From Owenia fusiformis (Eukaryota; Annelida; Polychaeta; Sabellida; Oweniidae): 64,000 bases of DNA. Location of the stretch: positions 12,496,842-12,560,841 of the forward strand of contig CAIIXF020000011.1 in the NCBI GenBank assembly GCA_903813345.2, written 5' to 3'. Below, in pieces: positions 724-33,879 of this stretch. How positions within the stretch are numbered: position 1 is the first letter of the stretch; every line of letters begins with the position of its first letter. Under the pieces are notes generated by a model. It ran no database searches. It was not told the DNA's origin and was given only the letters and a program-made list of their open reading frames with translations. Made by a program: the position numbers and the translations under genes.

Positions 724-3700
724 CTAGACCACCTGCTGCAAAGTTAACCACTGGCAATCGTCCAAGTTCAGCTGTCTTCTTCAAAAGTTCATATGGAACC
801 TGAAGTTGTTTGGCATATGAAAAGAGTTCACTGTCATCCATTCCCTTCGCTAGAGATATGTCCCGCTTGATTGTTCTAGCGTGCCTTACAGCTTCTATCA
901 CATTGCCTTCAAAAATGAAAATAATATTAAATCAATGATTTTTGATGTCTCAAGGAATAGGTCCTTTTCATGGTTGTTGTGAGAACGACAGGGTGACTGG
1001 CAGAAGTGTGATAATACATGCCTAGCTAAATGTAAATTTTCTACACGGTGTGTACATGTAATATCATGTTGCTTCATTTGGTTCCGATGAGATAAAGTAA
1101 AAGTGAAAATTATGATTCATCATCGGACATTGTACTCGAGCTTAACATAACTTACGGTTTCCATTTAGAGAGGAAATGTGAAATATGCTCTTATCCCGAG
1201 GAAATAATTAAATCAAAATTATTTTTGATTATTTCCTATGTGAACTAAATTATAAGATCACGTTATTATGAACTCATATAAATATCTGCCGAAGCGCAGA
1301 ATAGATGGCAGCATCGATCAAAGTGACTATGTACATGTACACATGACTTACACAATACAATACAATACAATACAATACAATACAACACAATACGATACAA
1401 TTAATACAATAATTACTTGCCAATATAATAATAAATTACATATGTCGGGTGCTGTAAATGTCTCGGTCACATTGTAACATTACCTGTGCCTGCCTCCCCT
1501 TTGGTACGAATCATGGCTGCACCCTCCGAGATCCTCCTGAGCGCCTCTCCAAGGTTCCTGGCTCCACAGACAAACGGTACAGTGAAGTCTCGTTTGTTAA
1601 TGTGGTTTTCAGGATCGGCTGGGGTTAGCACTGCAAATTAGAATAATGATAATTGTGAAATTAGATGATATTCAACCCCTGTTTCAAAAACAGACAATTA
1701 TGTCATCTTAAAGATTTGAAAAGTCACTCGACGGAACGCGGACTGTTCGTTTTGCTACTCAATTAAATTTTGTTTTCGGTAGGTACAGATCTGAAGATTG
1801 CTATATGCAGAGATGTATTTTGAGCATGTTGGATCAGGTTGGCTTGGTCCGTCCGTTTGTCCGTCTTTCCGCAAACATCTTTATATTGTTGGTATTGTTG
1901 GTGAGTTTTCATGTTCGAATCGTAATATAGACCTTAGAGTAGGTGTAGTATCGACGAATACACCCCTTAGTTCGTTCGGGGTACAGAAAACGCTTGTGCC
2001 TAGGCCTGCGGGGTGTATTCTTTGGTCTATATTTCTTAAATATCACTGTAACTAAATTAAAAAAATAACACCAGTTCCCAATTCTGCACTAAATTAAATT
2101 ATGTAGATTGAATCGTGATTATTCAACGGGAAGTTCAATATCGAAAATATAAATCGACTCAATAAACTTGTGTCTATTCATTTTGGCACATTTACCACGT
2201 GTTTAAACAACTGGTTAGAACTAAAATAGTTCTCAAAAGCTGTATACTACAGACAGGATGTGGCACGTCTATGATTTTAAGACGTCTCGATAACTATCTC
2301 CTTTTCAAGAAGACTACACGACATGTGGAACTGTTCAAACAAACATGGCGGAAGTTCAGCATGTAAATATCACCAAGTATGGCTTCCATTAAGTTATCTA
2401 TAGTATCAGACGATCAATCAAAATGTTATCATGTCAGTATTGAATAGACCAAAGATAAAGAAAAGACTAGAAAAGACATAATGTCTTCAATAGCCAAGGA
2501 CATACTGTATTGGAAAGGTATTTTAAATAATCTAGGTCTTGGAGGGTGGGAGCTAGAGGGGGCTCAGACTGATGACGAACATGAATGGCAACTTTGAAAT
2601 AAATAAAATCATAGTTATCAGTGAAATAAGGCATAAAGGGTATCAATCTTTTGAAACTCATTAAAGTGGACTGAGTGGAGGATGCCATTTCATGCCAGAA
2701 GGCGATTTATCTCGATGAGGTTCAAGTTTTATTGGAATATTTACATGTCTTGCAACATAATAAGAAAAAAAGAAAAGCCGTTAATTCCTTTGGCCATTGA
2801 TGCAAGTCACGGGGCCTATTGATTGTATAACACATCTCAGAGGAAACTCAATTCCTTGACTGATAATTGTCGTTGTACTTACCGGTTCTTTCTGGTTTAC
2901 AACTACAACCTTCAGTGGCGGATCCAGGAACCAACAAGGGTGGAGGGCAAATTTTCGGTCAGAGAAAAAAACTTCCGCGGAAAATTTTTTTGGGTCCCTA
3001 AAACCGAAAAGTGGGCCCAAATTTTGAAATGTTGAGGCCCATTTTCTTAAAAAATAGTAATGACCATTTTTTGGGGCCTTAAGCCTTTTATGGCCCAACT
3101 TTTTTTGGGCCCATTTATTTTTCTGGGCCCAACTTAGGGGGGGGGGGGGGGGGGGCGGGCCCCATGGCTCCCCAGGATCCGCCACTGACCTTTGCAGATT
3201 GAGCCTATAAAGATCACAGCTCGGTGCGGAGAAAGAGCCCTCGACGCGGAGTAATATTTACCGTGATGGAACTTTTTAAACATGTCATGAAAACGGATTT
3301 TTTTAACAAAATTGCACAGGCTGAAATACGAGTTTCCACGATTTCACGAGTTGTAGGCAGAATCCGTATGATCTTTTTGGCATAAACTTGTGTCAGCATC
3401 ATATGTTTCAGATTCTAGGCTGTTGCAAACAAAGACGCCAGAATGATCGAAACAATTATTCACTATTGCTACATAAACGGAACGGTTAAAGGTGCGATGC
3501 TAACCGTTTGAAATATCCGTGTGCGCTTGAATAACAAAAGTGAGAAAATATACGCACAAAATTGTTAAAGGCCCCATATAAAGTTTAAACCACTTTGGCT
3601 TATATTGCAGTCTTACCCAATGTTATCAAAGTGTAATATGTGAAACTTTTTTTTTAAATTTCAAAAAGTGGTTTTTGATAAACTTTTTGTTCCAAAATTT

Positions 3701-6700
3701 GTGAATTTATTTAAAACCAACTTCTAGAGGTCACTCATATCTTTTAATTAGCCACAATTCAGACCAATGCATAGCATCCAACCTTCCATGTTTTTTGCCG
3801 AAAGAAATAAGAAAATCGGTTCATAAATAATGGCGGGAAATTTGAATATTTGAGAAATGAAATGCTCACAACATTTTTTTGTTCAAAAATCTCTAAAATC
3901 ACTTTTTAAGTCCTGACAAATAGTAAATGAATGATAAAAAAATATTTTCAAACTTTAGACGGGGACTTTAAGGCTTCAAACGTATTTAACGTAACAAACC
4001 TTCTGATTCGTCCACCATATCGACTCCCAATGATTGCAATATCTGCGCCTCAGCAAAGTGACCAATCCTAGCCTTGGCCATCACTGGGATTGTAACTGCC
4101 TCCATTATTTCTTTAACTTTCTAAACAGTGATAGACGCATTTTGTTACATATTTCTGCAATATTTTTTGTAAATCTCCAAGTTGTTTTAATTTTTATTAT
4201 TGTTTAGCACACCATTCAATTCATTTATCTATAGTGAATCAGAATAAGTAATATGCACATTGAGTTGCAGCTCAAATGTACTGAAAACAATTTTATAGAC
4301 AGATCTCTTAAAAAGAGAGTTGATTCAATTAAAAAGAGAGTTCAATATTGAGGTCAATAAATGTTATCTTACTCTCGGGTCACACATTCTTGCCACACCC
4401 CCGTCTTTGCGTATGTCTGCTGGTACTCTCTCTAGGGCCATAACTGCGCATGCCTAGAAACAGAAGAAAAATATAGGAGTTTCTTTATAGCTTTGAAATC
4501 TCCCGATTGATTAGGTCTCGGATGCTCTCGGATGCTGATATTCTGAAAGTGTTTTTCAGTTCTACAATTAAATATTTTAACCACTCGGAGACTGATTAAA
4601 TTAGGCAGTTTAACCTTATAAGTTTATGCAATCTTATGACGAATTGGAGACTAAATTAGGCAGTTGACCTTATAAGGTTAAGAAATGTTATGATGAATAT
4701 GAGACTGACTTTTAATTGGGCAGTACTAGTTGACCTTGTAGGATTATGAAATGTCGCGAATCAGAGATTGGGTATTAGATTATACAGTTGACATCGTAGA
4801 GTTATGAAATGTGTTTGTGTTACTTGTTCTTTGGGAAGCAGGATTTCAAATTCTTAAATGCATTCATTTGTTCGATTTTGATACTTAAAACTGAGTAATG
4901 AAACTCACCCCGGCGTCCTCTGCAATTTTAGCCTGTTCGGCATTGACAACATCCATTACGATGCCACCCTTTGCCATCTGAGCTAGGCCGGACTTCACTG
5001 CAAACGTTCCTGTAAGAATTAAACAATGCTATAACCCTAAAATCAATAGAAAGTTTACGTCACGTGACATGACGTGTGTGGTTGAAACAATTTGCCGCGA
5101 AATACGGTTTTGTAGATAAAAATGAAACCCTGGCTTTTAAAATCGAGTAATTCGCTCTTACGTTGAGCCAATTATTGCATGATAGAGGCTATTCTCATCA
5201 ATTTTGCAAAGGGTATAATATCACTTGTAACTGAGTGCGAAATCAATCGAGCTACGCCATTGAAAGCATGTCATTTATGGAACAGCAAACATTGCCAGTG
5301 TTTTGGGGATTAAAACGTGTTAACCCGGATGTAATTCTGTAAGGCCAAAATATAATTATCCGGTTAACATTTTCAGTTATCGATATACGGTTTCACAAAT
5401 GCATTTCAATCAATTCCTTGTATATGTAGTGAATAATATTGCAGTGCTCTTTCCTCAAGCATTTATTTTTGTGATGTTCAATCAATCAATTCAAATTAAT
5501 TATTTGGCTATTGGAATGCTTGCGAATGTGGAACTAATGTATATTTCTACTTTGGTTCAGCCTTCGTATTAGTTTGCATCAACAACTTTTCGATTGAGCC
5601 CCAGAATAACTTTGCAGACCGTACGTCATGGTCAGGTGACCTCAAAAAGTGCGCGAAAATAACAACATTTCTAAGGTTGACAGTCTTTATAAATCATGCT
5701 GTGTGGGGAAATATCACAAGCTGTGTGGTCAAAATAACAAAAGGGATGCTATTTGTGCTAAAAACAAGATAATAAGAGATTCTTTAATTGGTTTTAGTAC
5801 TACTTTAATTACATGAGTCACAACTTTATTGATATTATTACAAAAAAGTCTATCACTTTATGGTGCAGGCCATTATAAAAGCAGTTGATGGCTACTATAT
5901 TTTTATTCTAGCGAATAAGCACTTATTTTACTGATTATGAAAGTAATGGTTAGGGATGTGTTTTATCAATTATATTATTAATGAAACACTATCGATGAGA
6001 GTCTCAGTTACTTCTTAGAATTACAAGGGTGTCCCAGAACTCATGAGAATTTTTTGAGGGAGATATAAGGCATTAATGATTTTATTTCATATAAGTGCAC
6101 TTAATAAACAAACATTGAGGAATAAGTGACATGAATTTCAGGCACATATCTTTTATATTTCCGAATTTATTGACATTTGAATTCTACATCGCCACAAACC
6201 CCGGAGTAGAAATACAGCAATTTACGTCACATTTTGCATCTGCAGTTGATGTCTTTTCAGCTACTCTTTATACATATTACCAAATCGTTCTAAAGGGTCC
6301 TCTGAAACAACATGACTCAATTCTTCCTCCGTTTCAGTGACATGCCCCACTCATTTTTGTTTAAGGTCCCCAAAGAAATGAAGTCTAGTAGAGCAAAATC
6401 TGGCAAAAATATGGAGCTACTATATTCTGTAAAGTCTCAATAGAAAGTAAATTGGATGCACTACTGACATGCATGTAATGACTTGTCCACTAGTGCATTG
6501 TCAAAATGCAAGATCATATTGGCTATCAAATGGGGACGTTTCTAACAGTCCCTCAGGAACATGTCATTATGATTTTTCAGCAAACCAAATGTACAATCCG
6601 TTGATGTATTGGGTCTCTATCAAAATTTATATATCGTTTTATCAAAGTGCACCATCAATATGAGAAAAATGCTCAACTAAGCTTATACAAAAGACGTTGG

Positions 6701-7063
6701 TTTCATATTTGAGAATTTGTATAAAATTGACAAAATGTGACATAAACTGTCGTATTTTACCGACAACTCCGGGGTTTGTGGCGATGTAGAATTTAAATGT
6801 CAATAAATTCAGAAATATAAAAGATATGTGCCTGCAATTCATGTCAGTTATTCCCCAAAGTGTGTTTAATAAGTGTACCAAATTTGAAAAAAATCATCAA
6901 TGCCTTATATCCCCCTGCCCCTGGGACAACCTGTAGAAAGCGCTAAAACTGTGTTTGATTATAGATAAACATTGATTCAGTTATATTAGAATAATTGGAA
7001 CATTGATTTGATATTGAAATACGCAAAATACATACCATTTGTAACTCCTGGTAAAATAGGCAT
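724..7063 (-). CDS. PDX1: Pyridoxal 5'-phosphate synthase, PdxS/PDX1/SNZ subunit (six exons, 3' end outside window)
   Basis: Synthase subunit of the DXP-independent vitamin B6 pathway. It condenses ribose 5-phosphate, glyceraldehyde 3-phosphate and ammonia to PLP in a (beta/alpha)8 barrel. Exons in coding order on the minus strand: 7063-7036, 5009-4909, 4453-4373, 4120-4000, 1630-1484, 906-724, all with GT/AG ends and matching phases (1,0,0,1,1,1). They give 220 residues starting [17 protein letters not shown]. Visible family blocks: [10 protein letters not shown] (Asp29, equivalent to B. subtilis Asp24), [31 protein letters not shown] (Lys86, equivalent to Lys81), [27 protein letters not shown] (Lys154, equivalent to Lys149) and [10 protein letters not shown]. 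About 70 residues, with the second half of the phosphate site, are missing only because the window ends. The first exon has just 28 coding bases. The gene is divergent from PdxT at 7844. Its introns hold a mariner fossil and several MITEs. Identity is very secure. Whether the gene is expressed is not shown. Confidence 0.96.
1349..1410. repeat. (ACAAT)n microsatellite
   Basis: About eleven 5-bp units of the ATACA/ACAAT register, decaying at the right end (ACACA, ACGAT). It lies in the intron between PdxS exons 6 and 5. Confidence 0.85.
1919..2040. repeat. Short inverted-repeat element (MITE), copy 1
   Basis: AATATAGACC near the left end is inverted as GGTCTATATT near the right, and GAATACACCCC is inverted as GGGGTGTATTC inside. 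A second, more diverged copy lies at 8913-9084 with the same CATGTTCGAATCGTAATATA left flank, so this is a dispersed family. No transposase is visible. Confidence 0.6.
2913..3187. mobile_element. CAGTGGCGGATCC MITE (hAT-like), 275 bp
   Basis: Ends are CAGTGGCGGATCCAGGA and the inverse TCCCCAGGATCCGCCACTG, flanked by a 5-bp direct repeat ACCTT (2908-2912 and 3188-3192). The inside is low complexity with a run of about 20 G near 3137-3156. It is non-coding, and CAG..CTG ends fit non-autonomous hAT elements. A decayed relative ending ATCCTGGATCCGC is near 54100. Confidence 0.7.
3335..3500. repeat. Diverged relic of the CACTGGTGATCC element arm
   Basis: The stretch GTTGTAGGCAGAATCC, then GTGTCAGCATCATATGTTT, then a TTGCAAACAAAGACGCCAGA block follows the order of the left arm of the element at 10958-11494, with many substitutions. 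The outer ends are not recognisable. Confidence 0.45.
3565..3971. mobile_element. TTAA-flanked MITE, ~400 bp
   Basis: TTAA (3565-3568) followed by AGGCCCCATATAAAGTTTAAA-like sequence on the left. The right end, read inversely, is TTAAAGTCCCCGTCTAAAG (TTAA 3968-3971). TTAA target duplications are typical of piggyBac and Kolobok relatives. The interior is AT-rich and non-coding. It sits in the intron between PdxS exons 4 and 5. Confidence 0.6.
6026..6935 (-). mobile_element. Mariner-like element with decayed transposase
   Basis: About 0.9 kb in PdxS intron 1 with long inverted arms (about 6026-6245 and 6720-6935), ends GGGTGTCCCAGAACTC and an inverse form of CCCCTGGGACAACC. On the minus strand the middle translates to pieces of a mariner transposase: [13 protein letters not shown] (compare the LHxDNA motif) around 6485-6525, and [20 protein letters not shown] (compare SPDLAPxDYxLF) around 6355-6415. 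The frame is broken by stops and the two pieces are close together in the right order. Long copied arms around a shrunken core suggest an old internally rearranged copy. Confidence 0.7.
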
Positions 7064-7843
7064 TTTCTTATTCAGTTTCTGTATTGTTAATATTCGCTTC
7101 TACTTCTTCCGTTTGCTCAATCCAAGTTAGATTCGCGTTTCCCTAATTTGGCACCCTTACAACTCACAAGAATTCACTTAAAAAATAGTAAAGTCATTCA
7201 GAGGACATACATCCGACTTCCCTATGACAAGCGTATTTATATTACAATTGTTATATGTGTCTGTCTTTGATATCTGGTGTGAATATTCTAGTTACAAAAT
7301 ATAGGTTACTTAATATTCCACGTTACAAACAGGGTTTAAATTATTGCCAAAAGTACCAAAATGTGTGTATTTCCTACATGGAATTTGACATCTGTTTGAA
7401 GGGTGATAGTCCTACATCGAGTTCAGAAAATTGACATCTGTTTAGGTGATAGTGCAATCGTAAGATAACCAGAATGTGTTAAGGTAATAAAGGGTGATGT
7501 TTACGAATTTATTACGAAAGTTAAAATTAGGGTTTCGTCATCTGAGGCCAGTATGTAAGTCCTTGGTAAAATCTAGAAACATCGACTTATCATATTGAGA
7601 ATTACAATATTATCAACCACAACGATTAGAAAATCAGTGAACAAACATTTTTAGTATTTTCTAGTATGTAATGAACTTACCAACACAGAGGAATGATATA
7701 GGACGCCTAAACTAGCTGTAAACAAATAAAGGATACAACGCACATTTTATTGCCAGAAAAATCCAAGCAGTTTGCAGGGAAAGTTAAATTTTTGCAGTGC
7801 ATTACAAAATAAGTACAAACAGATTTTTAAAACGCATCCTATT
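7064..7843. promoter_or_regulatory. Putative shared bidirectional promoter of PDX1 and PDX2
   Basis: This 780-bp strip separates the two divergent start codons. It has no repeat element or further coding exon that I can recognise, in contrast to the repeat-filled introns on both sides. I see no convincing single TATA box, and transcription starts cannot be placed from sequence alone. Inference: one divergent promoter region co-regulates the two subunits, as in the head-to-head SNZ/SNO pairs of yeast. Confidence 0.5.
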
Positions 7844-10800
7844 ATGAACATGCTCAAAGTTGGTGTACTTGCGTTCCAAGGGGCTTTCAGTGAACATGAA
7901 CAAGCATTAGAGAAAGCATTTCAGACAATGAATAATACTGAGACGGATTCTGAGCTAAGTCTCCAAATAACTGAAGTACGTGTTCCGTCTCATTTGGACG
8001 GTTTGGACGGCCTTATCATTCCCGGGGGTGAAAGCACTACCATGTCGATATTCCTAAACAAAAACAACTTTAAGCAGAAATTGAGATCGATGATTGAAGG
8101 TATTTGATGTTTTCAGATCATTTTCTACATGTGTAGCTCCTTCCTATGAATATATCAGTTAGATGTGGGGAGGGAACATTCAATTTGGAGGGTCGGCTAA
8201 AAATGTCCAAAAAAGTGTATGGTAGTACGACGTCATATTTTAGGCCGATTCTAAGAAAGTGGACTTTGAAAGTATGGCTTCCGATTTCTGAAACATAGTC
8301 TGGCAAAATGTTTTCCAATAAGATGTGATACCTACGCTGGATTTTTAAAAAAATCTTGTCAGGTGAAAGGTCTTGTGTTTTAGGTGTTAATGGAAGAAGG
8401 ACGATTGTCTGGGGAACTTGCGCTGGGCAGATACTTTTATCAAACACAGTTCTTTGTCAAAAAACGGGAAGCCAGCAAATGGTTAGTAAAGGAAAATAAA
8501 TTATACATCCATATACATGTAACATGTTTTGTGGCTTTTCTTGATGGCCACACTAAAAAGAAAACAGGTAATCCAATTCGCTGAAAGATTCTTAATCCCC
8601 CACCATAGTTTCAACAATATTTATTACTAACACTTAAAAACGCACACACTTTCACATTTCTCTATTTTGTTAAATGAATATTCCACTCAGATATTTAACA
8701 TTTCTACCATATTTCTACGCTCACCGTAATATCAATTCGATTTTGAGTGTATTCACACCTTCTATAAGCTGTGAACAAAGTCAACGTTTCACCCGGTATG
8801 TATTCGTCGACACTGCACCTGGTAATTCGAGTAATATGTGACGTCATAACGGGAGGCCGTAGTAATGGCGGGCCTTAATGAATTTTCGAAAATATTTTGT
8901 GAGTTTCCATGTTCGAATCGTAATATAGACCCCAGAGCATGTGATGTAACGACGAATACATAGCTTTGGCTAGGCTCAAAAGCTTTCGAACCCCTCACTT
9001 CCTTAAGATCGTTCAGGGTTCAAAAACTAAAAAAAATGTATTCTTCGATATCGACTCCTGCTCTTCGGTCTTTATTTCTTAAATGAAAAGGGGATCGCAG
9101 AAATGAACAAATATTATCAGAGCATGGACTTTCAAGAGTCTCTTGAAAACCTGTGTTCCGAGTTATTATTTCTACGGCTACCTTACGGTCTGTAAAAAAA
9201 CGAATACAGCGTACGGATACCGCAATGCGACAGTAGTTTTTGATCTGCGGTCGACGTACGGTCAACGTACGGTCGCCGTCCGACAAATGTGACTTCGGTG
9301 CTACCATAACAGCCTTTACTACATTATGATGCGGGGCCGTGTATTTTTGTATAACCGCGGAGCAAGTGAATTTTATACGGTTGCATAATATATTTGTTGT
9401 ACATAAAGATATAACAAATCAATTGAGCTTGAAGCCACGCCTAACCATCGTTACAGTGACAAAATATACCGTTGTACACTTTCGATGTACGTTGTCACTA
9501 TTCTAACTGATATGAAGCAAAAACTATGCAGCAAGTGTGATGTAGGTTTTAAAGATTAATCTTAGGAATACATAAAGAATTTCATTTCATTTTCCATTTT
9601 CAAAAAATCATTAAATGTATCATCAATTTTCGACTTATTGTAATTGAGGAAAAAAATTGAGAAAATTTAGAGGTATTGGAAATAAAGTCAAATTACGTTT
9701 CCGTCAGTAGGATAAGTATTTTCATCGCAAAAATTCAAAGGTAAAGAGGCTTTAACACGTACTTCAATGGGGGAGTTAATGTTGCCAAACTTATGGAGGG
9801 GAGTGTACGTTGTCCCATTGAACTTACATATCGGAATTCAGAGTTAACCTTAATGTAGACTAGAAAACGTATTTATCATATAATGGACAAGGGGATTAAT
9901 TAGATTCATTTAAAACTGAAACTGAACAGTATTATTTAAACTTTGAACTATTGAACCTCCGCACTTGCGTGATATTATAGCAATATTCAAGATTTTATTG
10001 TGTTTCAAGCCAAAACAATTGACTTCCTCACAAAATCCATTACAAGACATAATTATACAGTTATACAGTAAAATATTTAAATATAACTATCTTACAAACT
10101 AGTTTATTCCTTTTTCAAAAAGCTCCCGACGTTGATTGAAAAGTTTATTTATAAATATATCAATTCGTTTACAATTTCATAATCATCATCAAAATTGACA
10201 AATTCTGTCTTTTACTTCAAGTCGGTTCTGTTTAGTGCCATCTTTTTTCTTTCTCTCGTGTCTCCCCGTTTCAATTCTTAAATTATGGTTTGCTATAATT
10301 TTCAAGTGAAACATAGACCAAAATTCACTTCCGTATAATAATACAGGTTTAACAAACATGTCAAATCTACATTGATATAGTTGAAAACTTAAAATGTTGT
10401 CTCATCATAAAAATAACTTTCAATGCATTCTTACTTAATTACGATATTCCATATTTCATAAAAGTGTTATAGCATAAACGGCATTTTAAAAAGTCATCTT
10501 CGACAAGCATGTGTAGATCTCTCTATCAACTTCTTAAGATTATTAAAATACATAAAAGTGTATTTTATTACGTTAAAGTACAGATTCCAAATGATCAAGA
10601 GGTTGGAGGCTAAACTTATACCCAATACATAATATTAATCAAATCTTCACTCATCCTAAATTGTGTAGTTTAGAGAAACATATTCTCATAAAAATAATCG
10701 ACATTCTTAGGTGACAGGGGGAAAAATGATCAAAGGAAATGTCGAAAAACCCAACATTTCCCACCGATCAATTTTTGTGGATTAACTACGAAAAAATCGA

Positions 10801-13800
10801 GCATTGCTCGAAAATCTTTTAACGTAATCAGAAAGCTAAAAGTCTTCCAAAACGAATACACACGAAATTAAACATGAAATCTTTCAAGTATTCCCCATAT
10901 TATTTTTAAAAACCTACATCACACCTGCATCATAGTTTTTGCTTCAAATCAGTTAATCACTGGTGATCCACTCGATTACGCTGGTTACCAAAACGGTTCG
11001 TTTTGGTAACAAAATGTCGGAACATCCGGAAGGTACGATTTTTCTCGTTTCCTTATTTTACACGTTGCAGGCAGAATTCCCACGACATTTTTTAACACAA
11101 ACGTGTATCAGTATCATATGTTTAAGAAAGTGTACATATTTGCGAACAAATAGTCCAGAAGACAACAGAGTCGTCGATTTACTTCCTCACTTAAGTTACA
11201 TAAACGGTTTGGGTTAAAAGTGCAGATCTTAACTGTTTTTCGAAAAACCGTTTATGTAACTTAAGTGAGGAAGTAAATCGACGATTCTGTTGTCCTCTGA
11301 GCTATTTTTTCGCAAACATGTACATTTTCTAAAACATATGATACTGATGCACGTTGTGAGAAAAAACGTCGTAGGGATTCTGCCTACAACGCGTGAAATA
11401 AGGAAAAAAGAAAAATCGTGCCTTCGACGCTCCGACATTTTGTTACCAAAACGGTTCGTTTTGGTAACCAGCGTAATCGAGTGGATCACCAGTGTTAATA
11501 GTGACACCGTGCATCTAAAGTGTACAACGGTATATTTCGTCACTGTACCTTGTCGATGGTTAGGCGTGGAAGCGCTGGTTTAAAAAATATAATTCAGATG
11601 ATAGAGTTCAAAATTTGCAATCGTCAAATCCTGCTCGCAGTGAAAACATCTTGTACAAAATTGCAGCCCAAATGTCATGATGAACTTAAGCAGAGAACTA
11701 CAATAACATAAAGTTATAACAAATCGATTGAGCTTGAAGCACTGGATAAAAAATATGATTTAGATGATAAAGTTCAAAATTCTGTCAATAGGCGTCTAGA
11801 ACTGCAAATATCTGAGATTGGGGTTGAGCCTTCTCTGTGCATAAATCATGTTAGCACTCAACTTTATTTATTCTCCAGATAGGTGGCGTTGATATTACTA
11901 CATCAAGGAATACTTACGGCAGACAATGTGAGAGTTTTGAGTCAGAGATCTCAACACATCACGAAGATCTTCAACAAGATGGTCAGTGTCTAGATTATTT
12001 TGAGTTTGATTTAACCCCCTCTCGCCTGTTAACATGTACATTAATAAAACAAACATTCAATCAACATTTTATATCGAGCACTTCTAAATTTAAACATTAG
12101 GTAAGTGCATTTAGTTCATTGTTCATTGTAATTGCCGGGTAAAAGAAAGTCGATGCAAGAGATCGTTGGAACCCATTTCCTAGTTACATACTAACACATG
12201 AATACCATTAATTCGAAGAACTGCTATTAGTGAAGAATGGAAGGGAGATTTCAAAATATAAAACGACAATTTGAGAAGATAGAGAATAAATACAGAGTTT
12301 AAAAAAATAAAATTGTGATTTGGACAGCTCGAAAAGGTCGTAAGAAAACTATTTTTCAAAGACACTTTTGAAGAAATATACGCCTTAATATGTTTCCAAT
12401 ACAATAAGATGGGTGTCTTGGTCGCAATACATCCGTGTCTTCGTATCATTTATCATAATACCAGTACAGATTACGAAGTTAACATTACACATTTCCAAAT
12501 TAAAAATCATGTTAAAGAGACACATTGGTTTGGCAACAAACTCGATGAATACTATATTTATTCATAACTTAGATTCCAATCTGAATTGTGCATTCGTTCA
12601 TTTACTAATTTACCCTATATAAACAAGAGTTTAAGCCACAGGTCGATTTTATGTAGCAAGTAAAACAAAAATGAACAAATCAAGAAAATAGAATGCAAAC
12701 AATTGATATCATGCATCTACAGTAACTCAATTTGGTATCGAACATTATGTTTAATTGTTTTTAACGATGTAGCTAAAATTTAGACTGGGTGTACTCTTCG
12801 TCTTAACCTAGAAACCGGCAATCTTATAATAAGGCCTACCTCGTCTACAGCGATAATGTGAAACGTGTTAAAATGAATGAAAAAGAAACTGTCGTGTTAT
12901 GAAAGAGCGCTCTATTCATCTAGACTTGAGAAAATATGTTGTTAAACCACTTTTATAGGCCATTATTCAATTATGACTTATTGATTCAGGTTCTTTTAGT
13001 TCAGAATTATATCAAATAAACAGCAAAATATAAACTATCAGCTCTAGAAAAACTGATTGTATAATATCACACACGTAAATCATTTTAGGCTCGGTGCCTA
13101 TTTTGTTGCATGGCACTTTTATATTATGTAGTTTTATTCACCATCTTAAAGATGAGTACATGTATATAATAAATATGTTGAAAAAATAAAAAGTAGAAAA
13201 TATGTGAAAATACTGCAAGTGACAGGTATCGCCTTTTGTACAGGGAAATAAAAATGGTTTCATGTAAGTAATTAGGTAATTTCAAATTGAAATACATGTG
13301 TATGGAATGAAATTCTGTGATGATGATCAAAATATATTTTTGGATAAATTCATTTTTTTACTGTAATCCACTTTACTTTATATTATCTGCAGGCGTCTCG
13401 GTGTGCAGAGGAATTTTTATAAGAGCACCTGGTGTGGTTTCCATTGACGACTCATCTGTAATTACCTTAGCAACCATTGGAGATGAAAACACGGGAAACA
13501 AAAGGTACGATACACCAATGGTTAAATAAAGTCCCCAATACCATGGCTTGAAATAATAGGTCAACATGTGATCGCTCCATAGTTTTCTGCCAAAACGATT
13601 TTGCCGTGTACCAATCGAAACGAGCCAAAATATCAAAATTTCCCTTGGATGATGGCTGTCATAAATATATCACAATTCTAAACATAGACTGTTTCTTCGC
13701 ATATGTCAGTATCTAATTAACTCTTATTTTTGTCGCTGCCCATTGTTCTATGACTTCTTTGATCACTTTTGGTTTCTCGCACTGAACGAAATGTTTGGAG

Positions 13801-13993
13801 GTGGAGCTCATTATAACCGGCGTCTGGTTTTCTTTTCAGAATCGTTGCAGTTCAACAAGGGAACATCATGACCACATCATTTCACCCAGAACTCACAGAG
13901 GACACCCGTTGGCACACTTTCTTTCTAGATCAAATTTTAAAACTTAGAACAACGTCTCAGTCTTGCGCACGATCCAATGAAAACATCATTTAA
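7844..13993 (+). CDS. PDX2: Pyridoxal 5'-phosphate synthase, PdxT/PDX2/SNO glutaminase subunit (five exons, complete)
   Basis: Class I glutamine amidotransferase that hydrolyses glutamine and channels ammonia to the PdxS subunit. Exons: 7844-8099, 8384-8481, 11879-11981, 13393-13504, 13840-13993; all splice sites are GT/AG and phases match (1,0,1,2). The product has 240 residues, close to yeast SNO proteins and longer than the ~196 of B. subtilis. Visible motifs: MLKVGVLAFQGAFSEH at the N-terminus, LIIPGGESTTMS (residues 57-68), VWGTCAGQILLS with nucleophile Cys98, RNTYGRQCESFE, GIFIRAP, and TSFHPELTED with His205 and Glu207 completing the triad. The start at 7844 matches the family start; an in-frame Met at 7772 would add 24 residues. 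The second intron contains nested inverted-repeat transposons. A polyadenylation-like AATAAA lies at 14239. All key catalytic residues are present, so a working enzyme is likely. Confidence 0.95.
8913..9084. repeat. Short inverted-repeat element, copy 2
   Basis: Shares CATGTTCGAATCGTAATATA, then GACC, then a CGACGAATACA block, and the closing GGTCTTTATTTCTTAAAT with the copy at 1919-2040. It is more diverged and longer in the middle. It lies in PdxT intron 2. Confidence 0.5.
9436..11568. mobile_element. CAC-ended inverted-repeat transposon with 5-bp target duplication (outer, interrupted)
   Basis: Left end CACGCCTAACCATCG (9436) and right end CGATGGTTAGGCGTG (to 11568) are flanked by the exact 5-bp direct repeat GAAGC (9431-9435, 11569-11573). 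The arms are about 120 bp (9436-9555); the right arm is split by a second element into 10905-10957 and 11500-11568. An uninterrupted relative of the target, CTTGAAGCACTGG, survives at 11735-11748, which confirms the ends. No transposase is seen. The inside includes a stretch (about 9590-9800) that recurs inverted near 27370-27580. CAC ends with 5-bp duplications fit the Transib/ProtoRAG superfamily, but this is inference. Confidence 0.75.
10958..11494. mobile_element. CACTGGTGATCC long-palindrome MITE, 537 bp (inner)
   Basis: A nearly complete palindrome with arms of about 260 bp, starting CACTGGTGATCCACTCG and ending in its inverse, flanked by the 5-bp direct repeat TTAAT (10953-10957, 11495-11499). 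It is inserted in the right arm of the element 9436-11568; the matching site in the left arm is intact (inverse of 9495-9515). Other copies are at 21974-22088 and 43058-44070, with a relic near 3335. The open frames here on both strands are mirror images of one another and are not genes. Confidence 0.85.
11577..11800. repeat. Tandem ~170-bp repeat, interrupted by the CAC-ended element
   Basis: AACAAATCGATTGAGCTTGA at 11717-11736 repeats the sequence at 9411-9430, and the block TTTAGATGATAAAGTTCAAA near 11759 repeats TTCAGATGATAGAGTTCAAA near 11593. The unit was tandemly duplicated, and the first copy was then split by the transposon at 9436-11568. Confidence 0.6.
11982..13392. other. PdxT intron 3, no element recognised
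   Basis: 1.4 kb of AT-rich intron between exons 3 and 4. Open frames here are short, lack codon structure and match nothing I know. Confidence 0.5.
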
Positions 13994-16900: not shown

Positions 16901-17572
16901 AACGAAAGAGGTTTAGATATAACACTTGAACTATACCAATAAATTATTGTAGTATGTTTGGCGTTTTTGGTGAACAAATATTATAAATATATGATACGTC
17001 TATTAAATATTAATGCAAACTAATGGGTGGTATTGGTGATGGTGTTTCTATGGTAACTGGCAAGTTCTTGTCAATGCTTACATGTATGTGTATTTACATT
17101 ATAGTGTATAGCATTGCATTATATAGCCCCAATGCTCTGTTTGGTAGCATTATTAACTAGGGCCACAATGTGTATTACCTATTATGAAAAGCGAATATTA
17201 AGATATTACAGAAACAGACAGTTCAGAATGAGAAGAAAAACGTTGCTTAGATTTTCAATACTGGATCCAGAATTGAAAAAATTACTGACACCATTTGATT
17301 AAAGCATGTTTACAAAACACATATTACTTACTTACCTTACTTACCATGATATCAGTATTTATAATTGGCCCTATTGATCGATCGTTACAGAACAATAGCT
17401 GAAAACCAACAACAAAATGACCAATGTTTGCATTAGAAACAATAAAAATACCCTCTACATTCCTAATCAAGGCAAACCCGGTGGCTTTCATCTTTGTTTA
17501 CATTCAGATTTTTCTTGCTTACGCTACGATAACGTTATTTTTTACTTTTGCAGGCTCTTGTTGAAATCGAAA

Positions 17573-19909
17573 ATGCCTCCCGGTTGGGCCAATGTCCGAT
17601 TGAAGTCGAGAGAATCTCCAGTAAACAATATGCAAAACTCGGACAGCTCGAAGCTTCTTTCCATCTTAAGTACCAAATCAAGCAAAAAACAGGGATTTTT
17701 CCCATCGATAGATCCAGACGTTGTAAAATGGAAACAGGACATACGATATAAGGCTGCTAAAACCGTCATATCAACATCAACAACGATAAACCATCTCCCT
17801 CGGGATATTCCAATTGACGTCTTGGAACAATATAATAACAGAATACATGGTGCTGACAAAATATTCAATCTGCCTAAGGTTACAATGAACTATAGAGTCT
17901 CTCATAAGAAAGCAGAGAGTCAGTTTATACTTAAGGACAATTCCGCTTACACAATAACAAAGCCCGCAGCATTCGGGGGCATTAGTTCCGCAAGTAATAT
18001 GAGCAAACCAAGTTTGGCCATCAGCCAAGATAGGATGGTCGTGGCGAACATGCCTGATACCCTAAAACTTGTAAAAGACCACAGTCTCGTGTATGTATAC
18101 CCAGGCAATGCAGGACCTGGCAACGAGGAGACATCTACATTTCGATTCCCCACACTTGAAGATGCAATCAAAGCTCAAGAACAGAAACGCTTGGACAAGA
18201 TGCATCTTAAACAACTACAGATTACGCGTAAAAAGGAACTGACACTCCCCGATTTAAAGCTACACAAAGATAACTCAATATTTAGACCAGATCGAATGAA
18301 TAACAACTTACCAACTATCAAACATCCAGATCATACAACTAACGTCCCAGATCGAAATTTAACTTTAGTTCCCGAAATTAAGTCCCCAATACCAGAAAAT
18401 GAGTCATCAAATGTAGAACATAGAAGCGAAACGATGGCAACTATAAATCTAGGAGATAATACTCCTCTGAGAGATATCAAGGACAATGTACTGAGACAGA
18501 GAGCACTGACTAAAAATATCGCCCAAAAACTTGCCAATAGTTCTAACTCACCTGGTATAACAGTTCAAGAGCACACACGAGGAAAGGTGAAATTACACAT
18601 TAAACAAAATATAAGTAAAAGAGTTGAACCCATTGATCATTCTAATTCTAAGGAAAATCCCAACCAACCGACGCTTACTGTGTGCTTATCTAAGCCTTTT
18701 GTTGAACCGAAACTCATTCCTAAACCAAGGTCCAAACCAAGGCTAAATCCGATCCAAGACCACATAACAATAGTAAGAGCGAACATTGAAAAAATGCGCG
18801 AGCGAATCGAAAAGCAAAAGCAGGAGTTACAAAGAGAGGTTGAAAAGAGAAAAAGGGTTCATATTGAACAATCCACTCCCACGAATGAGCAACAGAAACA
18901 TATAATACAATATTCGCGTAAAAGTCCATATCGAAGTACTCCTCAAAATAATTCAGAAAAACGTCAAATCTTTCAAAAAGAGAAAATAAGTTCATTTTTG
19001 AGCGTCCCTGTAAAAGAGACTGGACAATCAATTGGACCTGCTGGTAAACAAAATATAAATACGGACGACCCTGGGAATCATATCAGCAACAATCCCCTTA
19101 CTTATACAATTGCTTTAAATGACGAAATTATTGAAGCTGATATAAAAATCATTCCTGAGCCACTCCCATCAATAGCTATTACCAGCGACCACACCTCAAG
19201 TAACGATACTACTGAACACACCGATCATTTCATAAGGGAACAGAGTTTATTGTATGAACAAACTAAAACTGAAGAGAAAAAAGTTACGATGGACATTGCG
19301 TTGCCTCAAATCAAAGTAGAAACTGCTGAGACAAAGACGTCTATATCATATCAGCGAGATTTCAGCCGATGGCACACCGATACATCGAGGAAACAGTCCA
19401 CATTTCTCAAGGGTGAGGTGTTTGGGCCAAATCATCACACATTATTGCCTATATCTATACCAACAGCTGGAGACGTAGTGGAAAGAACACCTCTTCAGAG
19501 TGAGGAAAACGATGACAATGACTACCAAATTAAAGAGAATGTTATTGCTCAAGTACAAATAGACAGTGATGATATGAAAACGCTTGCAAACGAAGGCAAC
19601 TATCCCGATGATGCAAGTGAACGCGACGAGGTGGAAAATGTCGAAATATCCCCGCAAGACAATATTCATGTTGAGAAACGTAGTCCAGACAATGGGCAAA
19701 CTGGTGAGGTTAAATCCTACAATCATTTTGACAACGAACAACAAGTTACAAAGAAAAATGAAGATGAGAATACTGGAGTTCGATTTGATAACGTAATAGA
19801 GATCAGAGAACGGACATATGAGGCAGGACCACCATCCATGGACGGTTTCAGCTCAGACGATGAATCCAACTTAAATGATCTGAGTGAATATGAATCAAGT
19901 GTGGACTGA
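17573..19909 (+). CDS. Uncharacterised disordered protein with coiled coil, 778 aa
   Basis: I do not recognise this protein. The long frame opens at 17417, but a pyrimidine-rich tract and TTTTGCAG acceptor ending at 17553 precede Met 17573 (MPPGWANVRLKSR), so translation probably starts at 17573 in an exon whose upstream neighbour is untranslated. The single exon encodes 778 residues. The N-terminal third is basic and has the most structured-looking text (DPDVVKWKQDIRYKAAKTV; FRFPTLEDAIKAQEQKR). Around residues 395-432 there is a short charged coiled coil (IEKMRERIEKQKQELQ). The rest is Asn/Ser/Thr/Glu-rich and low complexity, and the C-terminus is acidic (DGFSSDDESNLNDLSEYESS). No signal peptide, membrane segment or catalytic motif is seen. 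A cytoplasmic or cytoskeletal scaffold would fit the composition, but this is only a guess. Confidence 0.8.
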   Translation: MPPGWANVRLKSRESPVNNMQNSDSSKLLSILSTKSSKKQGFFPSIDPDVVKWKQDIRYKAAKTVISTSTTINHLPRDIPIDVLEQYNNRIHGADKIFNLPKVTMNYRVSHKKAESQFILKDNSAYTITKPAAFGGISSASNMSKPSLAISQDRMVVANMPDTLKLVKDHSLVYVYPGNAGPGNEETSTFRFPTLEDAIKAQEQKRLDKMHLKQLQITRKKELTLPDLKLHKDNSIFRPDRMNNNLPTIKHPDHTTNVPDRNLTLVPEIKSPIPENESSNVEHRSETMATINLGDNTPLRDIKDNVLRQRALTKNIAQKLANSSNSPGITVQEHTRGKVKLHIKQNISKRVEPIDHSNSKENPNQPTLTVCLSKPFVEPKLIPKPRSKPRLNPIQDHITIVRANIEKMRERIEKQKQELQREVEKRKRVHIEQSTPTNEQQKHIIQYSRKSPYRSTPQNNSEKRQIFQKEKISSFLSVPVKETGQSIGPAGKQNINTDDPGNHISNNPLTYTIALNDEIIEADIKIIPEPLPSIAITSDHTSSNDTTEHTDHFIREQSLLYEQTKTEEKKVTMDIALPQIKVETAETKTSISYQRDFSRWHTDTSRKQSTFLKGEVFGPNHHTLLPISIPTAGDVVERTPLQSEENDDNDYQIKENVIAQVQIDSDDMKTLANEGNYPDDASERDEVENVEISPQDNIHVEKRSPDNGQTGEVKSYNHFDNEQQVTKKNEDENTGVRFDNVIEIRERTYEAGPPSMDGFSSDDESNLNDLSEYESSVD

Positions 19910-21633: not shown

Positions 21634-22161
21634 GATGCGAGTAGGTAGCTACCATTTTCACCACCAGGTGGCTAATTCGGGGTAGATGGCATGGCGCAAT
21701 ATTAGAAAGTTCCCTCATTAAACTTGACTATTCTTCAGTTTTAGTGGTTCAATTTTCATACTACCATAATGTATCTGCTGGTTTTTATACAAATTAAAAC
21801 ATGTCCGGTAAAAGAAAAAGTTACCTGTCCAATTAAAGATATTTCACTTTTTGTGATTTTGTAACATGTTGTCTATGGGGAATCTCCCTGGCCTAGAAGT
21901 CTTATTTTGGTAAACACTTTTTAAAACCATATTTCTCGATGTAATTTTACATACCATATATATTTCAAATAATCACTGGTGATACACTCGATTACGCTGG
22001 TTACCGAAACGGTTCGTTTCGGTAACAAAATGTCGGAACGTCGAAGGAACCGTTTCGGTAACCAGCGTAATCGAGTGGATCACCAGTGATAATGTAAATA
22101 ATTACTTTGACTGAATTTTGAATTTTCAATGACATAAATCAAGATTATTTCTTCTCGCATC
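21634..22161. mobile_element. GATGCGAGTAG MITE, copy 1, with nested insertion
   Basis: Ends GATGCGAGTAG and CTTCTCGCATC. Inside it shares long blocks with the copy at 35081-35494 (CACCAGGTGGCT, TTTATACAAATTAAAA, ATTTCACTTTTTGTGATTTT, TTTTGAATTTTC). It is interrupted at 21974-22088 by a small CACTGGTGATCC element. A fragment in the opposite orientation is at 55155-55390. It is non-coding. Confidence 0.7.
21974..22088. mobile_element. 115-bp CACTGGTGATCC element, nested, 5-bp TSD
   Basis: CACTGGTGATACACTCG at the left and its inverse at the right, with TTACCGAAACGGTTCG arms, flanked by the exact direct repeat ATAAT (21969-21973, 22089-22093). It is an internally deleted relative of 10958-11494 inserted into a GATGCGAGTAG element. 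Confidence 0.85.
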
Positions 22162-23644: not shown

Positions 23645-26600
23645 ATGGCCATATTCAAGTCTTTTTTATTCTTTTTAAGTTTGAAAATAATTTCATCGCT
23701 TGACACGGGTGTAATGGAATATCACCTTGAACCAAACGAGGGAAAACAAGTTGTTACTGGTAGGTCTGATATCATAACGTACGTGTATTCCGACATAATT
23801 TAGCATTTTTTATGAAATGATTGTTCAATTAACAATTATATAAAGTTATATATCAGAGTGTTCGATTCTTTTCTTTACGTTATTTGTTCGTGTACAGGAT
23901 TCAGAATATAGCACAATGAACAAAAGATATATAAAATGTTTATAGGTGGGACGGTATCACTGGCCGTTAGGTCCAGAATGAATTGTTTTGTCGCTTGTCT
24001 GAAGAGCTCCATATGTATGTCGTCCGGATATAACAAGTACACAAAAGAATGTGAATTATACGATGAAGTCTCAAGTGAGATTTCAGCACAAGGATGGACT
24101 GTCACAACTACAGGTTAGTATTGAACTCTAGAAATTAGAACTCTTATTGAAAATGGTTCAGGGAGAAATGTCGGTAATAATTCATAAAGATATTTTAAAA
24201 TTCCAATCCGAAACTAACGAAAACGGCATTTGATCGAGATATCTTTAATCACTTCATTTTTGCATTTGAAAGAGCATTATTTTTAAATTCTCTAGTTAAG
24301 GAGTTCCTGGTGGCTAGGAAATTCGTCAAATTACAGAAATAGTCTTTAAATGATTTTTCTAAATTCCTGTGTTCGTTCTTAAAGTCTTGACCGATCTTTG
24401 TAACCCCCCCCAGTAAGGCCTACAGTAGACTGATTTTCTGGGTCGTGTCTATCCCGTAAAATGTCATCGTTAAAACGAACGGCCGGATGTCGTAAAATAT
24501 ACTCCTCAAAAAGGTTAAGGACCAGTGGTTTTCTTCATAGGTTTACATGTTGAACCCCATATTTGTTTGAACGCCTATTTTCTAGGCTTGGAACAATCAG
24601 TCTGAGCTGTATTTGACAGTCATGTATGGCTTAAATGATAGGTTTAAGACATATTGTGCCAGTTTTGAAAAAAGCTGAGGTCAGTTAAAGATGTATTATA
24701 CCATAGGTTTCTCGACCAGACAATCAATGATGTTCCATTGTTATTGCTAATATAATATCTCACATACCATGAATATATCTTGAGAATAACTTATGCGTAT
24801 TTTATTGCCGAAATATTGGAATAATCAACAGAACAACCAACCTCCAGAATTAAACACAATCGATTCCTCGGCTAGCGAGGGGAATCCTCGTTTAGTCACA
24901 CAAGCACCCAAACGCGCCCAAAACCAAGCACCCAAACCAAGCAACCAATCATGTTCATGATAAATAAATTCAACGAGCAATCAGATAACGGGGACTTTCC
25001 CGGTATATTCAAACTTAAGATTGAATTATTTTCCGTAAAAATAATTAGATCGGTCAACACAATCGCAAAATTAACACTGAAAGCGGGGAATTTCTTCTTT
25101 ATTAAGTAGCTGGGTGAATATGTGGTAAAGCTCAATGTGCAAAAAGGTCCAGAGGGGTTTTGATTGTGCTATCCTATGGTATAGAGCCTCTTTAAGCTAT
25201 ATTATCCAAGGGAGACATGTCTAGCTTCTCCTAGAGATAACTACGTTTGTTTTAATTGATCGAAAGGAGTGGTATCGATATGGAGAACTTTTTGATCACA
25301 CGTTTCTCTTAAACCAGTCATAAAAAAATCTGAAAATTTAACACATCATTAATGTTATGGTCATCTTTTGAATGGTAACAATATGATTTAAAAATATATA
25401 TATACCTTTATTTCATTCTCAAGAATTGGTAGAAAGGAGCAAAAACAATTGCACTAAAAAAACAAAAGATGTTAACAAAAACAGTTATATAAAATATTTC
25501 TAAATGATTTTTGCATTATATTGTTGTCAATCAGTCAACATTACATGAAATACCGTATTTTTTTGATTTTCTTCTGATTGGTCAGTTCTTGTGATGTACA
25601 AATCTGTATTGCTACTGAGATTGTCCTCATTGCTCATCTCCGTCGCAATACAGAAAATATTGGTACGGAGGGAACAATCTCGGAGGATCACACGATAAAA
25701 ACGTTATTGAATGATGTGAAGTGCAATACGGGATATATTCTGTCTCGATATTCTGTATTGACACTCGACTTCGTCCCATTCCAATACAGAATTTCTCGAG
25801 CAGAATATATCCTGTATTGCACTTCAAATCATTCAATAACTAATAAAATTGAGTAAATAGAAAAATGTTCCAATTTTTATTTGCCCACCCTATATACTTA
25901 TATGACCACAACCGTTTTTGGGCAAATTTACGATAATTGATATTTTCAAAATCAATTGTCAAAATACAACGTTTTGTTTTGATTGTGGTGATACAAACCC
26001 GGAGCATGGATTGCGTTAATATTTTTTTCAAAATACATAAAAATATGTTTGACATCAGCTCTTAAAAGGGCGATGTTAGATGTGTCTTACCGATGCAATG
26101 AAATACTTTTTCTATGGGTTTCTAGACAACTCATCCCAAGACAACTCATCCCAAGACAAGTCATCCCTAAGACAACTCATCCCAAGACAAGTCATCCCCA
26201 AGACAACTCATCCCAAGACATCTCATCCCAAGACAACTCATCCCAAGACATCTCATCCCAAGACATCTCATCCCAAGACAACTCATCCCACTTGTATAAT
26301 TGATAAATTATTTTGTCCTCTATATTATATATATCCCTTTTTCATTTTTATGATTACAAAGTGATTTTTAATTACACACTCAATTTTTAATACTGATTTT
26401 TAGCATTTTGAAATGGCATTTGAAAGTTATGTTTTACTTGTGAGTACTGCCGCTATTTTGATTAATTCTGAGTTATTCTAAATATATTTGAGAATATAGA
26501 ACATAAAAGTCATAGACATTATTTCCAAATTTAATCATCATAAATCTGAAATTTTGAAATTGGCAATCTTATTTAGGATTAAGCCAAAATATTTTAAAAC

Positions 26601-29689: not shown

Positions 29690-30830
29690 GTATAGTGTAA
29701 ATTCTGTGTCAAAAGTTTACAGACATAATTTCGCAATTTAGGTGCACGAAAATGTACGATTTCATGTGCTCTTTATTCCAGACGCTCTAAAAGCGAACGC
29801 TCTCCATTCCTGACGCTAATGTTCTATTCCAGACGCTATTTACCTATTCCCGACGCTATCTATTCTGGACGCTCTGAAACCGAACGCTATCTATTCAGGA
29901 CGCTCCATTCTGGACGCTCACTATTAAACCGGACGCTATCGATTCCAGACGCTCTATTCCAGACGCTCTATTCTGGACGCTATTAAACCGGACGCTATCG
30001 ATTCCAGACGCTCTATTCCAGACGCTCCATTCTGGACGCTCTATTCTGGACGCTATTTAACCGGTCGCTTTCAGCAATCAGGACGCTCTATTCTGGACGC
30101 TATTTAACCGATCGGTTTCTGCAATCAGGACGCTCTATTCTGAACGCTACTATTTAACCCGACGCTTGTATTCAAGACGCTCCATTCTGGACGCTCGATG
30201 ACATTAACCAAAAGCTCTCCACTCTTATTCTGATTGATATATTATGAACGTATTGCATTAACCCCGACCTCAACATATCACATCAAGGGCAATACAATAT
30301 TAAACACGCGCTTCTATCATATCGTAGTAAAGTTTCGAACATTTTCAAAAGATGGGGCGTATATTAGCACTTTTGATATTAAGTTTACGAATTTAATTTA
30401 TAGATCATGAACGTAAATTGCATTAACACTGTCTACAACATCTCACATCAAGAGCAATGAAGTATTTAACGAGCACATCTTACATATCATATCATTTGTT
30501 GCGGTAGACCTTCGGATTTGTTTTGTTTAGTAACATTACATAATTGGATTAGCTCAATATATGTAAGCTAGGGGTGGTAGCATATATTTTAAAATGGCTA
30601 TGGCAATCATTGGTAAAAAATCTTAGGAAATATATGCCATTTTTCTGGGGCTAGTTTACCCACAAACGATTTATTTTGAGCAATTTAAATGCATACTCAA
30701 CTATTCGACAGATATGCTACTTTGAAATTAAGAACATAAATAAACATACTTTTGCTTTTTTAGTCATTTATTCATGGAACAAATCTCACGTTACTGCCAA
30801 CTCGAAAAGCTAGTTTCGCATTCGTCAGGT
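29690..30830 (+). repeat. Left arm of a 24-kb inverted-repeat block
   Basis: From GTGTAAATTCTGTGTCAAAA on, this 1.1-kb stretch is repeated in inverse order at 52810-53856. Shared landmarks in order: TTAGGTGCACGAAAATGTAC, the GACGCT minisatellite, CATTAACCCCGACCTCAACA, TCTACAACATCTCACATCAA, TAGGGGTGGTAGCATATATT, ACTATTCGACAGATATGCTA. There is no coding sequence. Confidence 0.85.
29772..30196 (+). repeat. GACGCT minisatellite (14-15-bp units)
   Basis: About 28 units of GACGCTCTATTCCA, GACGCTATTAAACCG and GACGCTATCGATTCCA types in mixed order. The inverted counterpart is at 53389-53768. Confidence 0.85.
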
Positions 30831-33876: not shown

Positions 33877-33879
33877 AAA

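What the first reader, a model, noticed from the sequence alone, without database searches (positions are those of the whole stretch)
724..13993. Animal genome with a complete-looking de novo vitamin B6 operon-like pair (PDX1 and PDX2)
Seen: both subunits of the PLP synthase with conserved catalytic residues (PdxS Asp29, Lys86, Lys154; PdxT Cys98, His205, Glu207), each split by several spliceosomal introns and lying among animal genes and MITEs. Established: most animals studied depend on dietary B6 and lack both genes, while fungi, plants, many bacteria and a few animals such as a sponge have them. Inference: this animal can make PLP itself, and the pair is ancestral or an old acquisition now fully nuclear.
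Basis: partly seen in the sequence, partly recalled or inferred. Interest (0 to 1): 0.92.

Follow-up and report, generated by a model that had tools for sequence, protein, structure and literature searches.

The report
Vitamin B6 synthase genes in animal
A stretch of what looks like an invertebrate animal genome carries, back to back, the two intron-containing genes for the enzyme that makes vitamin B6 from scratch, an ability most animals lack but that has already been reported in a sponge and in one parasitic worm.

Summary
PDX1 (minus strand, six exons seen, 7063 down to 724, 220 residues) and PDX2 (plus strand, five exons, 7844-13993, complete, 240 residues) are unmistakable PLP-synthase subunits. 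All nine complete introns are GT-AG. Every active-site residue I checked is present. Two corrections apply. The genes are divergent (780 bp between start codons), not operon-like. PDX1 is not complete here: its last ~80 residues, including the C-terminal tail reported as essential, lie beyond the left edge. Repeats in the introns recur elsewhere on the contig, one copy abutting a fibrinogen-type ORF, which argues against contamination. Origin is not settled. The best tree puts PDX1 outside the sampled bacterial phyla, but with weak support (83/56). The nearest prokaryotic sequences are about as close as Arabidopsis, and no animal homologue was available. A B6-making animal is not new: the sponge Suberites and the soybean cyst nematode are on record. 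I file this as a new member of a known kind. It bears on how often animals kept or regained B6 synthesis, but it is not a new mechanism. Species, expression and activity are untested.

The parts
724..906 (-). PDX1 exon 6 (ends ...NFAAGGL; donor GT follows at 723-722; further exon(s) beyond the left edge)
   Evidence: tblastn
1484..1630 (-). PDX1 exon 5 (carries H120, R142, R143, K154)
4000..4120 (-). PDX1 exon 4 (carries K86)
4373..4453 (-). PDX1 exon 3
4909..5009 (-). PDX1 exon 2 (carries D29)
7036..7063 (-). PDX1 exon 1, start codon at 7063 (coding MPILPGVTN; inferred start)
7064..7843 (.). 780-bp intergenic region between the two start codons, candidate shared (bidirectional) promoter; one TATAAA on the minus strand at 7241-7236, no CCAAT or GC box on either strand
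7844..8099 (+). PDX2 exon 1 (start codon, GGEST motif)
8384..8481 (+). PDX2 exon 2 (nucleophile C98 in GTCAG)
8482..11878 (+). PDX2 intron 2 (3,397 bp) holding a foldback repeat at 10953-11498 and a repeat at 9593-9807, both with copies elsewhere in the window
11879..11981 (+). PDX2 exon 3
13393..13504 (+). PDX2 exon 4 (FIRAP motif)
13840..13993 (+). PDX2 exon 5 with H205/E207 and stop codon

Best explanation
This is a divergent pair of ordinary nuclear genes of an invertebrate animal that encode the two subunits of the DXP-independent PLP synthase. PDX2 is a glutaminase that releases ammonia from glutamine. [quoted passage not shown] subtilis K81, P1 site) and finally on K154 (K149, P2 site), to give pyridoxal 5'-phosphate. 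Shown here: gene structure, family membership, presence of the P1/P2 lysines, the P2-site residues and the glutaminase residues, and repeats shared with the rest of the contig. Inferred: that an intact C-terminal exon exists to the left, that both genes are transcribed from the 780-bp gap, that they assemble and make PLP, and that the lineage is old rather than a recent bacterial import.
For: Pfam and NCBIfam matches. PDB homologues of both subunits: PDX1 best hit a chain named PDX1.3 at E=1.3e-99 (Arabidopsis, organism recalled), PDX2 best hit PdxT 2iss_D at 4.4e-32. PDX1 is 71.8% identical to PDX1.3 over 209 residues, 69.0% to PdxS 2zbt over 210 (Thermus, recalled; 96.7% identical to L071 Thermus sp.) and 62.8% to yeast SNZ1 over 215. 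Seven B. subtilis positions checked (D24, K81, H115, R137, R138, K149, K187) carry the same residue at a constant offset of five; the offset agrees with the match of query 9-220 to 2nv2 4-215, equal in length (B. subtilis origin recalled). Roles of all but D24 were read in passages of PMC3024981. D29, K86 and K154, the three I tallied, are invariant in all 81 prokaryotic rows. All 9 complete introns are GT-AG and keep the frame. Repeats of PDX2 intron 2 recur at 21.97-22.09, 27.38-27.58, 27.98-28.07, 43.07-43.23 and 43.83-44.08 kb, and a stretch of PDX1 intron 4 (3341-3412) at 43.90-43.98 kb; fibrinogen, SUEL-lectin and CUB ORFs lie on the same contig.
Against: 79-82 residues of PDX1, judged by the Thermus and yeast chains, are not in the window, and no C-terminal exon was found in it. 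They include the C-terminal region that PMC3024981 calls essential. A broken C-terminus would make the synthase inactive. No transcript or activity data. The species is unknown. The trees have no animal homologue, their eukaryotic branches are weakly placed, and in the careful tree three Chloroflexota rows are marginally nearer to the window by path (0.51-0.52) than Arabidopsis (0.53).
Confidence: 0.82

Rival explanations
1. A past horizontal transfer from a bacterium (for example a Chloroflexota-like donor), later fitted with introns, as reported for the soybean cyst nematode.
For: The seven best prokaryotic loci are Chloroflexota by title and the best is 76.3% identical to the window PDX1, more than Arabidopsis at 71.8%. 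Sixteen prokaryotic rows outscore Arabidopsis. In the careful tree the nearest rows by path are three Chloroflexota. Transfer of this pathway into an animal has a precedent (Craig et al. 2008, seen only as a citation).
Against: Control: the other two eukaryotic PDX1 tested, Arabidopsis PDX1.3 (best 80.4%) and yeast SNZ1 (best 69.9%), are also closer to their best prokaryotic rows than to each other (62.4%) or to the window, so a prokaryotic best hit does not by itself mark a transfer. In the careful tree the window is not nested in a bacterial phylum, though with weak support (83/56). Ten introns in the pair and the divergent order do not suggest a recent import.
Confidence: 0.15
2. Contamination or chimeric assembly: the pair belongs to another eukaryote (fungus, alga, protist) present in the sample.
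For: The pathway is reported from fungi, plants and Plasmodium (PMC7954711 passage). The window's own assembly could not be searched.
Against: The 64-kb window has no N. G+C per 2 kb is 0.33-0.37 in the PDX part and 0.29-0.39 in the rest. Repeat families inside the PDX introns recur across the window, one copy ending at 28069 where the fibrinogen frame opens at 28068. Introns up to 3.4 kb are unlike fungi (recalled).
Confidence: 0.06
3. A decaying or pseudogenised pair, or one in which PDX1 has become a non-catalytic paralogue like Arabidopsis PDX1.2 (its non-catalytic nature recalled).
For: The PDX1 C-terminus is not visible and repeats have inserted in introns.
Against: No stop or frameshift in eleven exons; the catalytic positions checked are intact.
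Confidence: 0.07

Closest known systems
SNZ/SNO genes of the marine sponge Suberites domuncula (Seack et al. 2001, seen only as a citation and a one-line mention in PMC7954711)
   Same: An animal reported to have both genes; I recall, unverified, that these too are described as head-to-head.
[quoted passage not shown] 2008, seen only as a citation)
   Same: Animal genes of the same pathway.
   Different: That paper's title calls the pathway horizontally transferred; here no bacterial clade encloses the protein in the tree made, with weak support.
Yeast SNZ1/SNO1 (PDB 3fem for SNZ1)
   Same: Same family (62.8% identity for PDX1); divergent neighbouring genes (recalled; the 1998 paper is not held).
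   Different: Here the genes hold at least ten introns in all; that yeast has none is recalled.
Arabidopsis PDX1.3 (PDB 5k2z and others, organism recalled)
   Same: Same family, 71.8% identity over 209 residues.
   Different: Plant; not a linked pair (recalled).

Membership tests
PDX1 / PdxS (SOR_SNZ, PF01680) | Family profile match over the core barrel | tested here: met
   Pfam E=5.9e-110, profile positions 2-207 of 207
PDX1 / PdxS (SOR_SNZ, PF01680) | NCBIfam equivalog score cut-off for whole PdxS | tested here: inconclusive
   381.1 of 395 and 356.2 of 438.45 bits, below both cut-offs; matches stop at profile positions 219/298 and 208/287 where the window ends, so a whole protein was not available to score
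PDX1 / PdxS (SOR_SNZ, PF01680) | Asp24, Lys81, Lys149 (B. subtilis numbering) | tested here: met
   D29, K86, K154; invariant in 81 of 81 prokaryotic rows
PDX1 / PdxS (SOR_SNZ, PF01680) | P2-site residues H115, R137, R138, K187 | tested here: met
   H120, R142, R143, K192 (roles from passages of PMC3024981)
PDX1 / PdxS (SOR_SNZ, PF01680) | C-terminal phosphate loop (recalled) and C-terminal arginine R288 | not testable with these tools
   Outside the window; only chance-level tblastn hits in the window
PDX2 / PdxT (SNO, PF01174) | Family profile and equivalog cut-off | tested here: met
   Pfam E=4.2e-47; TIGR03800 169.8 bits, cut-off 105.55. A second PdxT model, NF010050, is matched under its cut-off (99.1 of 181)
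PDX2 / PdxT (SNO, PF01174) | Class I glutaminase Cys-His-Glu triad (triad recalled) | tested here: met
   C98 in GTCAG, H205 and E207 in SFHPEL
PLP synthase complex | 12+12 assembly and PLP formation | not testable with these tools
   Needs protein and assay
Operon-like gene pair | Same strand, co-directional | tested here: not met
   PDX1 minus, PDX2 plus, start codons 780 bp apart
Gene from a recent bacterial transfer | Nested inside one bacterial clade | tested here: inconclusive
   33-row careful tree: window outside the bacterial groups, but the branch that keeps it out has 83/56 support, and rows were chosen for likeness to the window
Gene of an animal genome | Contiguous with animal-type genes and their repeats | tested here: met
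   Fibrinogen_C, SUEL_Lectin, CUB ORFs on the contig (that these are animal-type is recalled); shared repeats. Read-level continuity not tested

The most novel reading that the evidence does not exclude
A bilaterian animal lineage has kept the divergent PDX1-PDX2 pair, with one shared promoter region, by vertical descent from the common ancestor of fungi and animals. Vitamin B6 would then not be a vitamin for this lineage, and the loss seen in vertebrates and insects would be a later, repeated event.
Probability: 0.4. Interest if true: 0.55.

Novelty: new member of a known kind. Interest (0 to 1): 0.42.

Why it matters
A 2021 review states flatly that animals cannot make vitamin B6 and, in the same paper, that the pathway occurs in some sponges (PMC7954711, abstract and passages). 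A linked, intron-bearing pair with the checked active-site residues intact in another animal makes the question of retention versus reacquisition directly testable, and gives a case for asking whether an animal is independent of dietary B6. The enzyme mechanism itself is ordinary.

Tried and rejected
Searching the window's own genome for the missing PDX1 exon: no genome is held. tblastn of three C-termini against the window: only chance-level hits, lowest E 1.1. Viral collection: the PDX2 query gave no relative among 6 pattern matches and the PDX1 query 2 loci at 71% and 67% among 4; both were single-sequence queries, which reach close relatives only; not pursued. Residues shared with plant and yeast PDX1 but rare in prokaryotes: no clear signal; at a 20% rarity threshold the window shares 5 with yeast (7 of 81 prokaryotic rows reach that), 3 with Arabidopsis (41 of 81) and 1 with both (8 of 81), so this neither supports nor excludes eukaryotic kinship. 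AU test of window+plant+yeast: not rejected, p 0.452; window+plant held together scored 2.71 log units higher than the free quick tree, p 0.548; the test of window+L001 did not finish and I did not rerun it. Gene models had one-base boundary errors and frame breaks; one search corrects them from the AG/GT signals. My first promoter-word check read TATAAA on one strand only; one search read both and found one TATAAA on the minus strand, which in 780 AT-rich bases is about what chance gives (my estimate). Literature: ten searches, of which I saw listings capped at 1 to 25 papers, and passages of a few. In these I met citations of the sponge and the nematode cases and no other animal with both genes; several searches were flooded with unrelated papers, one search returned none, and one search listed 1 of 4,046, so this does not show that none is in print. 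The three primary papers are not held. I recall that databases hold PDX1/PDX2 from other invertebrates, untested here. Species guess: the word TACATGTA is 16 against 1.9 expected, which I recall as common in molluscan DNA; too weak to use. PDX2 was not put in a tree.

All 80 were used, 29 of 80 (at most five per phylum or unnamed group), with the window, two eukaryotic and one Thermus PDB sequences.

Full report
What is there. Splicing the stretches that match PDX1 gives 220 residues from six exons on the minus strand; PDX2 gives a complete 240-residue protein from five exons on the plus strand. PDX1 introns are 2,026, 455, 252, 2,369 and 577 bp, and PDX2 introns 284, 3,397, 1,411 and 335 bp. 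All nine are GT-AG and keep the frame. A further GT donor follows the last PDX1 exon seen, so there are at least ten introns in the pair. Profile searches name both subunits without ambiguity: SOR_SNZ 5.9e-110 and SNO 4.2e-47, PdxT equivalog TIGR03800 above its cut-off. The PdxS equivalogs fall short of theirs; the matches end at position 219 of 298 and 208 of 287, where the window stops. This is far beyond chance.

What is missing. Thermus and yeast chains continue 79 and 82 residues past the end of the match (lengths and ranges). tblastn with the C-termini of PDX1.3, yeast SNZ1 and Thermus PdxS gives nothing significant in the window (lowest E 1.1). The missing part holds a phosphate-binding loop (recalled) and the C-terminal region, with arginine 288, that PMC3024981 (passages seen) describes as essential for catalysis and co-operativity. 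'Complete' is therefore right for PDX2 only.

Does it look active? PMC3024981 (passages) places covalent intermediates on K81 and K149 and lists H115, R137, R138 and K187 as the second phosphate site. The window has K86, K154, H120, R142, R143 and K192, plus D29 for D24 (recalled as catalytic), all at a constant offset of five, the offset of the match to 2nv2. D29, K86 and K154 are invariant in 81 of 81 prokaryotic rows aligned; I did not tally the others. PDX2 has GGEST, C98 in GTCAG and H205/E207 in SFHPEL. So PDX1 is not an obvious non-catalytic paralogue. Activity itself is not shown.

Layout. The start codons face away from each other with 780 bp between them (7064-7843). That is a divergent pair, not an operon. 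Of the words looked for on both strands (TATAAA, TATATA, CCAAT, GGGCGG) the gap has one TATAAA, on the minus strand at 7241-7236, no more than chance would give (the chance figure is my estimate). CpG observed/expected is 0.81 in the gap, 0.91 in the window and 0.60 and 0.77 in the exons of PDX1 and PDX2. A shared promoter is an inference. I recall that yeast SNZ1/SNO1 and the sponge genes are also head-to-head; the primary papers are not held, so this is a lead and not a test.

Is it an animal, and the same genome? No genome is held for the window. Five ORFs were given to Pfam: one has a fibrinogen C domain (3e-06), one a SUEL lectin (3.1e-10), one a CUB domain (1.1e-10), one (59260) only a match under its cut-off, and the 836-residue ORF at 17399 none. 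Repeats inside PDX2 intron 2 recur elsewhere: the foldback element 10953-11498 at 43066-43231, 43831-44075 and about 21970-22093, and 9593-9807 at 27375-27575 and 27982-28069, the last next to the fibrinogen frame that opens at 28068; 3341-3412 in PDX1 intron 4 recurs at 43903-43975. The window has no N and the PDX part has G+C like its surroundings. Contamination is thus unlikely, though a read-level check was not possible. The species remains unknown.

Where did it come from? The best prokaryotic PdxS is 76.3% identical; the seven best loci are Chloroflexota by title and 39 of the 80 kept are Chloroflexota. This might suggest transfer. The control weakens it: Arabidopsis PDX1.3 and yeast SNZ1 are also closer to their best prokaryotic rows (80.4% and 69.9%) than to each other (62.4%) or to the window (71.8% and 62.8%). 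In the 33-row careful tree the window branches alone between yeast plus a micrarchaeon (97/90) and a set of Arabidopsis plus the other prokaryotes (83/56), not inside a bacterial phylum; but that second support is low, the root is arbitrary, and by path three Chloroflexota rows (0.51-0.52) are marginally nearer than Arabidopsis (0.53). In the 84-row quick tree Arabidopsis is the nearest row by path (0.68), and a eukaryotic clade is not rejected (p 0.452) but neither is it shown. Rare shared residues carry no clear signal. PDX2 was not put in a tree; its best match in these loci is 43.4% over 219 residues, among the 68 of 80 loci that also hold a PDX2-like frame. Old vertical descent is the simpler reading given the introns, old transfer is open, recent transfer is disfavoured.

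What is known. PMC7954711 (abstract and passages) states that animals cannot make B6 and, in the same paper, that the pathway occurs in some sponges, citing Seack et al. 2001; PMC6253932 (passage) says most animals lack it. Craig et al. 2008, whose title describes a horizontally transferred B6 pathway in the soybean cyst nematode, is cited in PMC6367775 (reference list). A placozoan's rickettsial symbiont has pdxS and pdxT and is proposed to supply its host (PMC6879607 passage), which shows another route to B6.

Noticed in passing
window 29691-53850: A 24-kb segment bounded by ~1-kb inverted repeats (29691-30756 against 53850-52842, 88% over 1,076; outer 291 nt 97% complementary) with nested inverted repeats and two satellites inside; longest frame listed there 131 residues. 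Perhaps a very large non-autonomous DNA transposon. No clear target-site duplication by eye.
   Followed up: partly
window 30001-38000: Strong strand asymmetry (GC skew up to +0.28, AT skew down to -0.28, reversing at 36-38 kb), in the stretch that holds the nested inverted repeats 30827-32167 and 36715-37599.
   Followed up: no
window 38520-40419 and 49396-52019: Satellite arrays: about 16 copies of a 119-bp unit and about 14 of a 190-bp unit.
   Followed up: no
window 26124-26290 and 26964-27144: Two arrays of the same 15-bp unit in opposite orientation about 0.7 kb apart, like arms of a small element.
   Followed up: no
window 2913-3187: Short element with inverted ends CAGTGGCGGATCC, like a hAT-type MITE (ends located; family recalled), inside PDX1 intron 4.
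   Followed up: partly
window 6057-6916: Inverted pair 6057-6236 / 6731-6916 (85.6%) in PDX1 intron 1.
   Followed up: no
window 17399-19906: An 836-residue uninterrupted frame with no Pfam match at E 0.01.
   Followed up: no
L085 and L086: PdxS relatives (71% and 67%) on contigs of the viral collection; could be phage-borne or bacterial carry-over.
   Followed up: no
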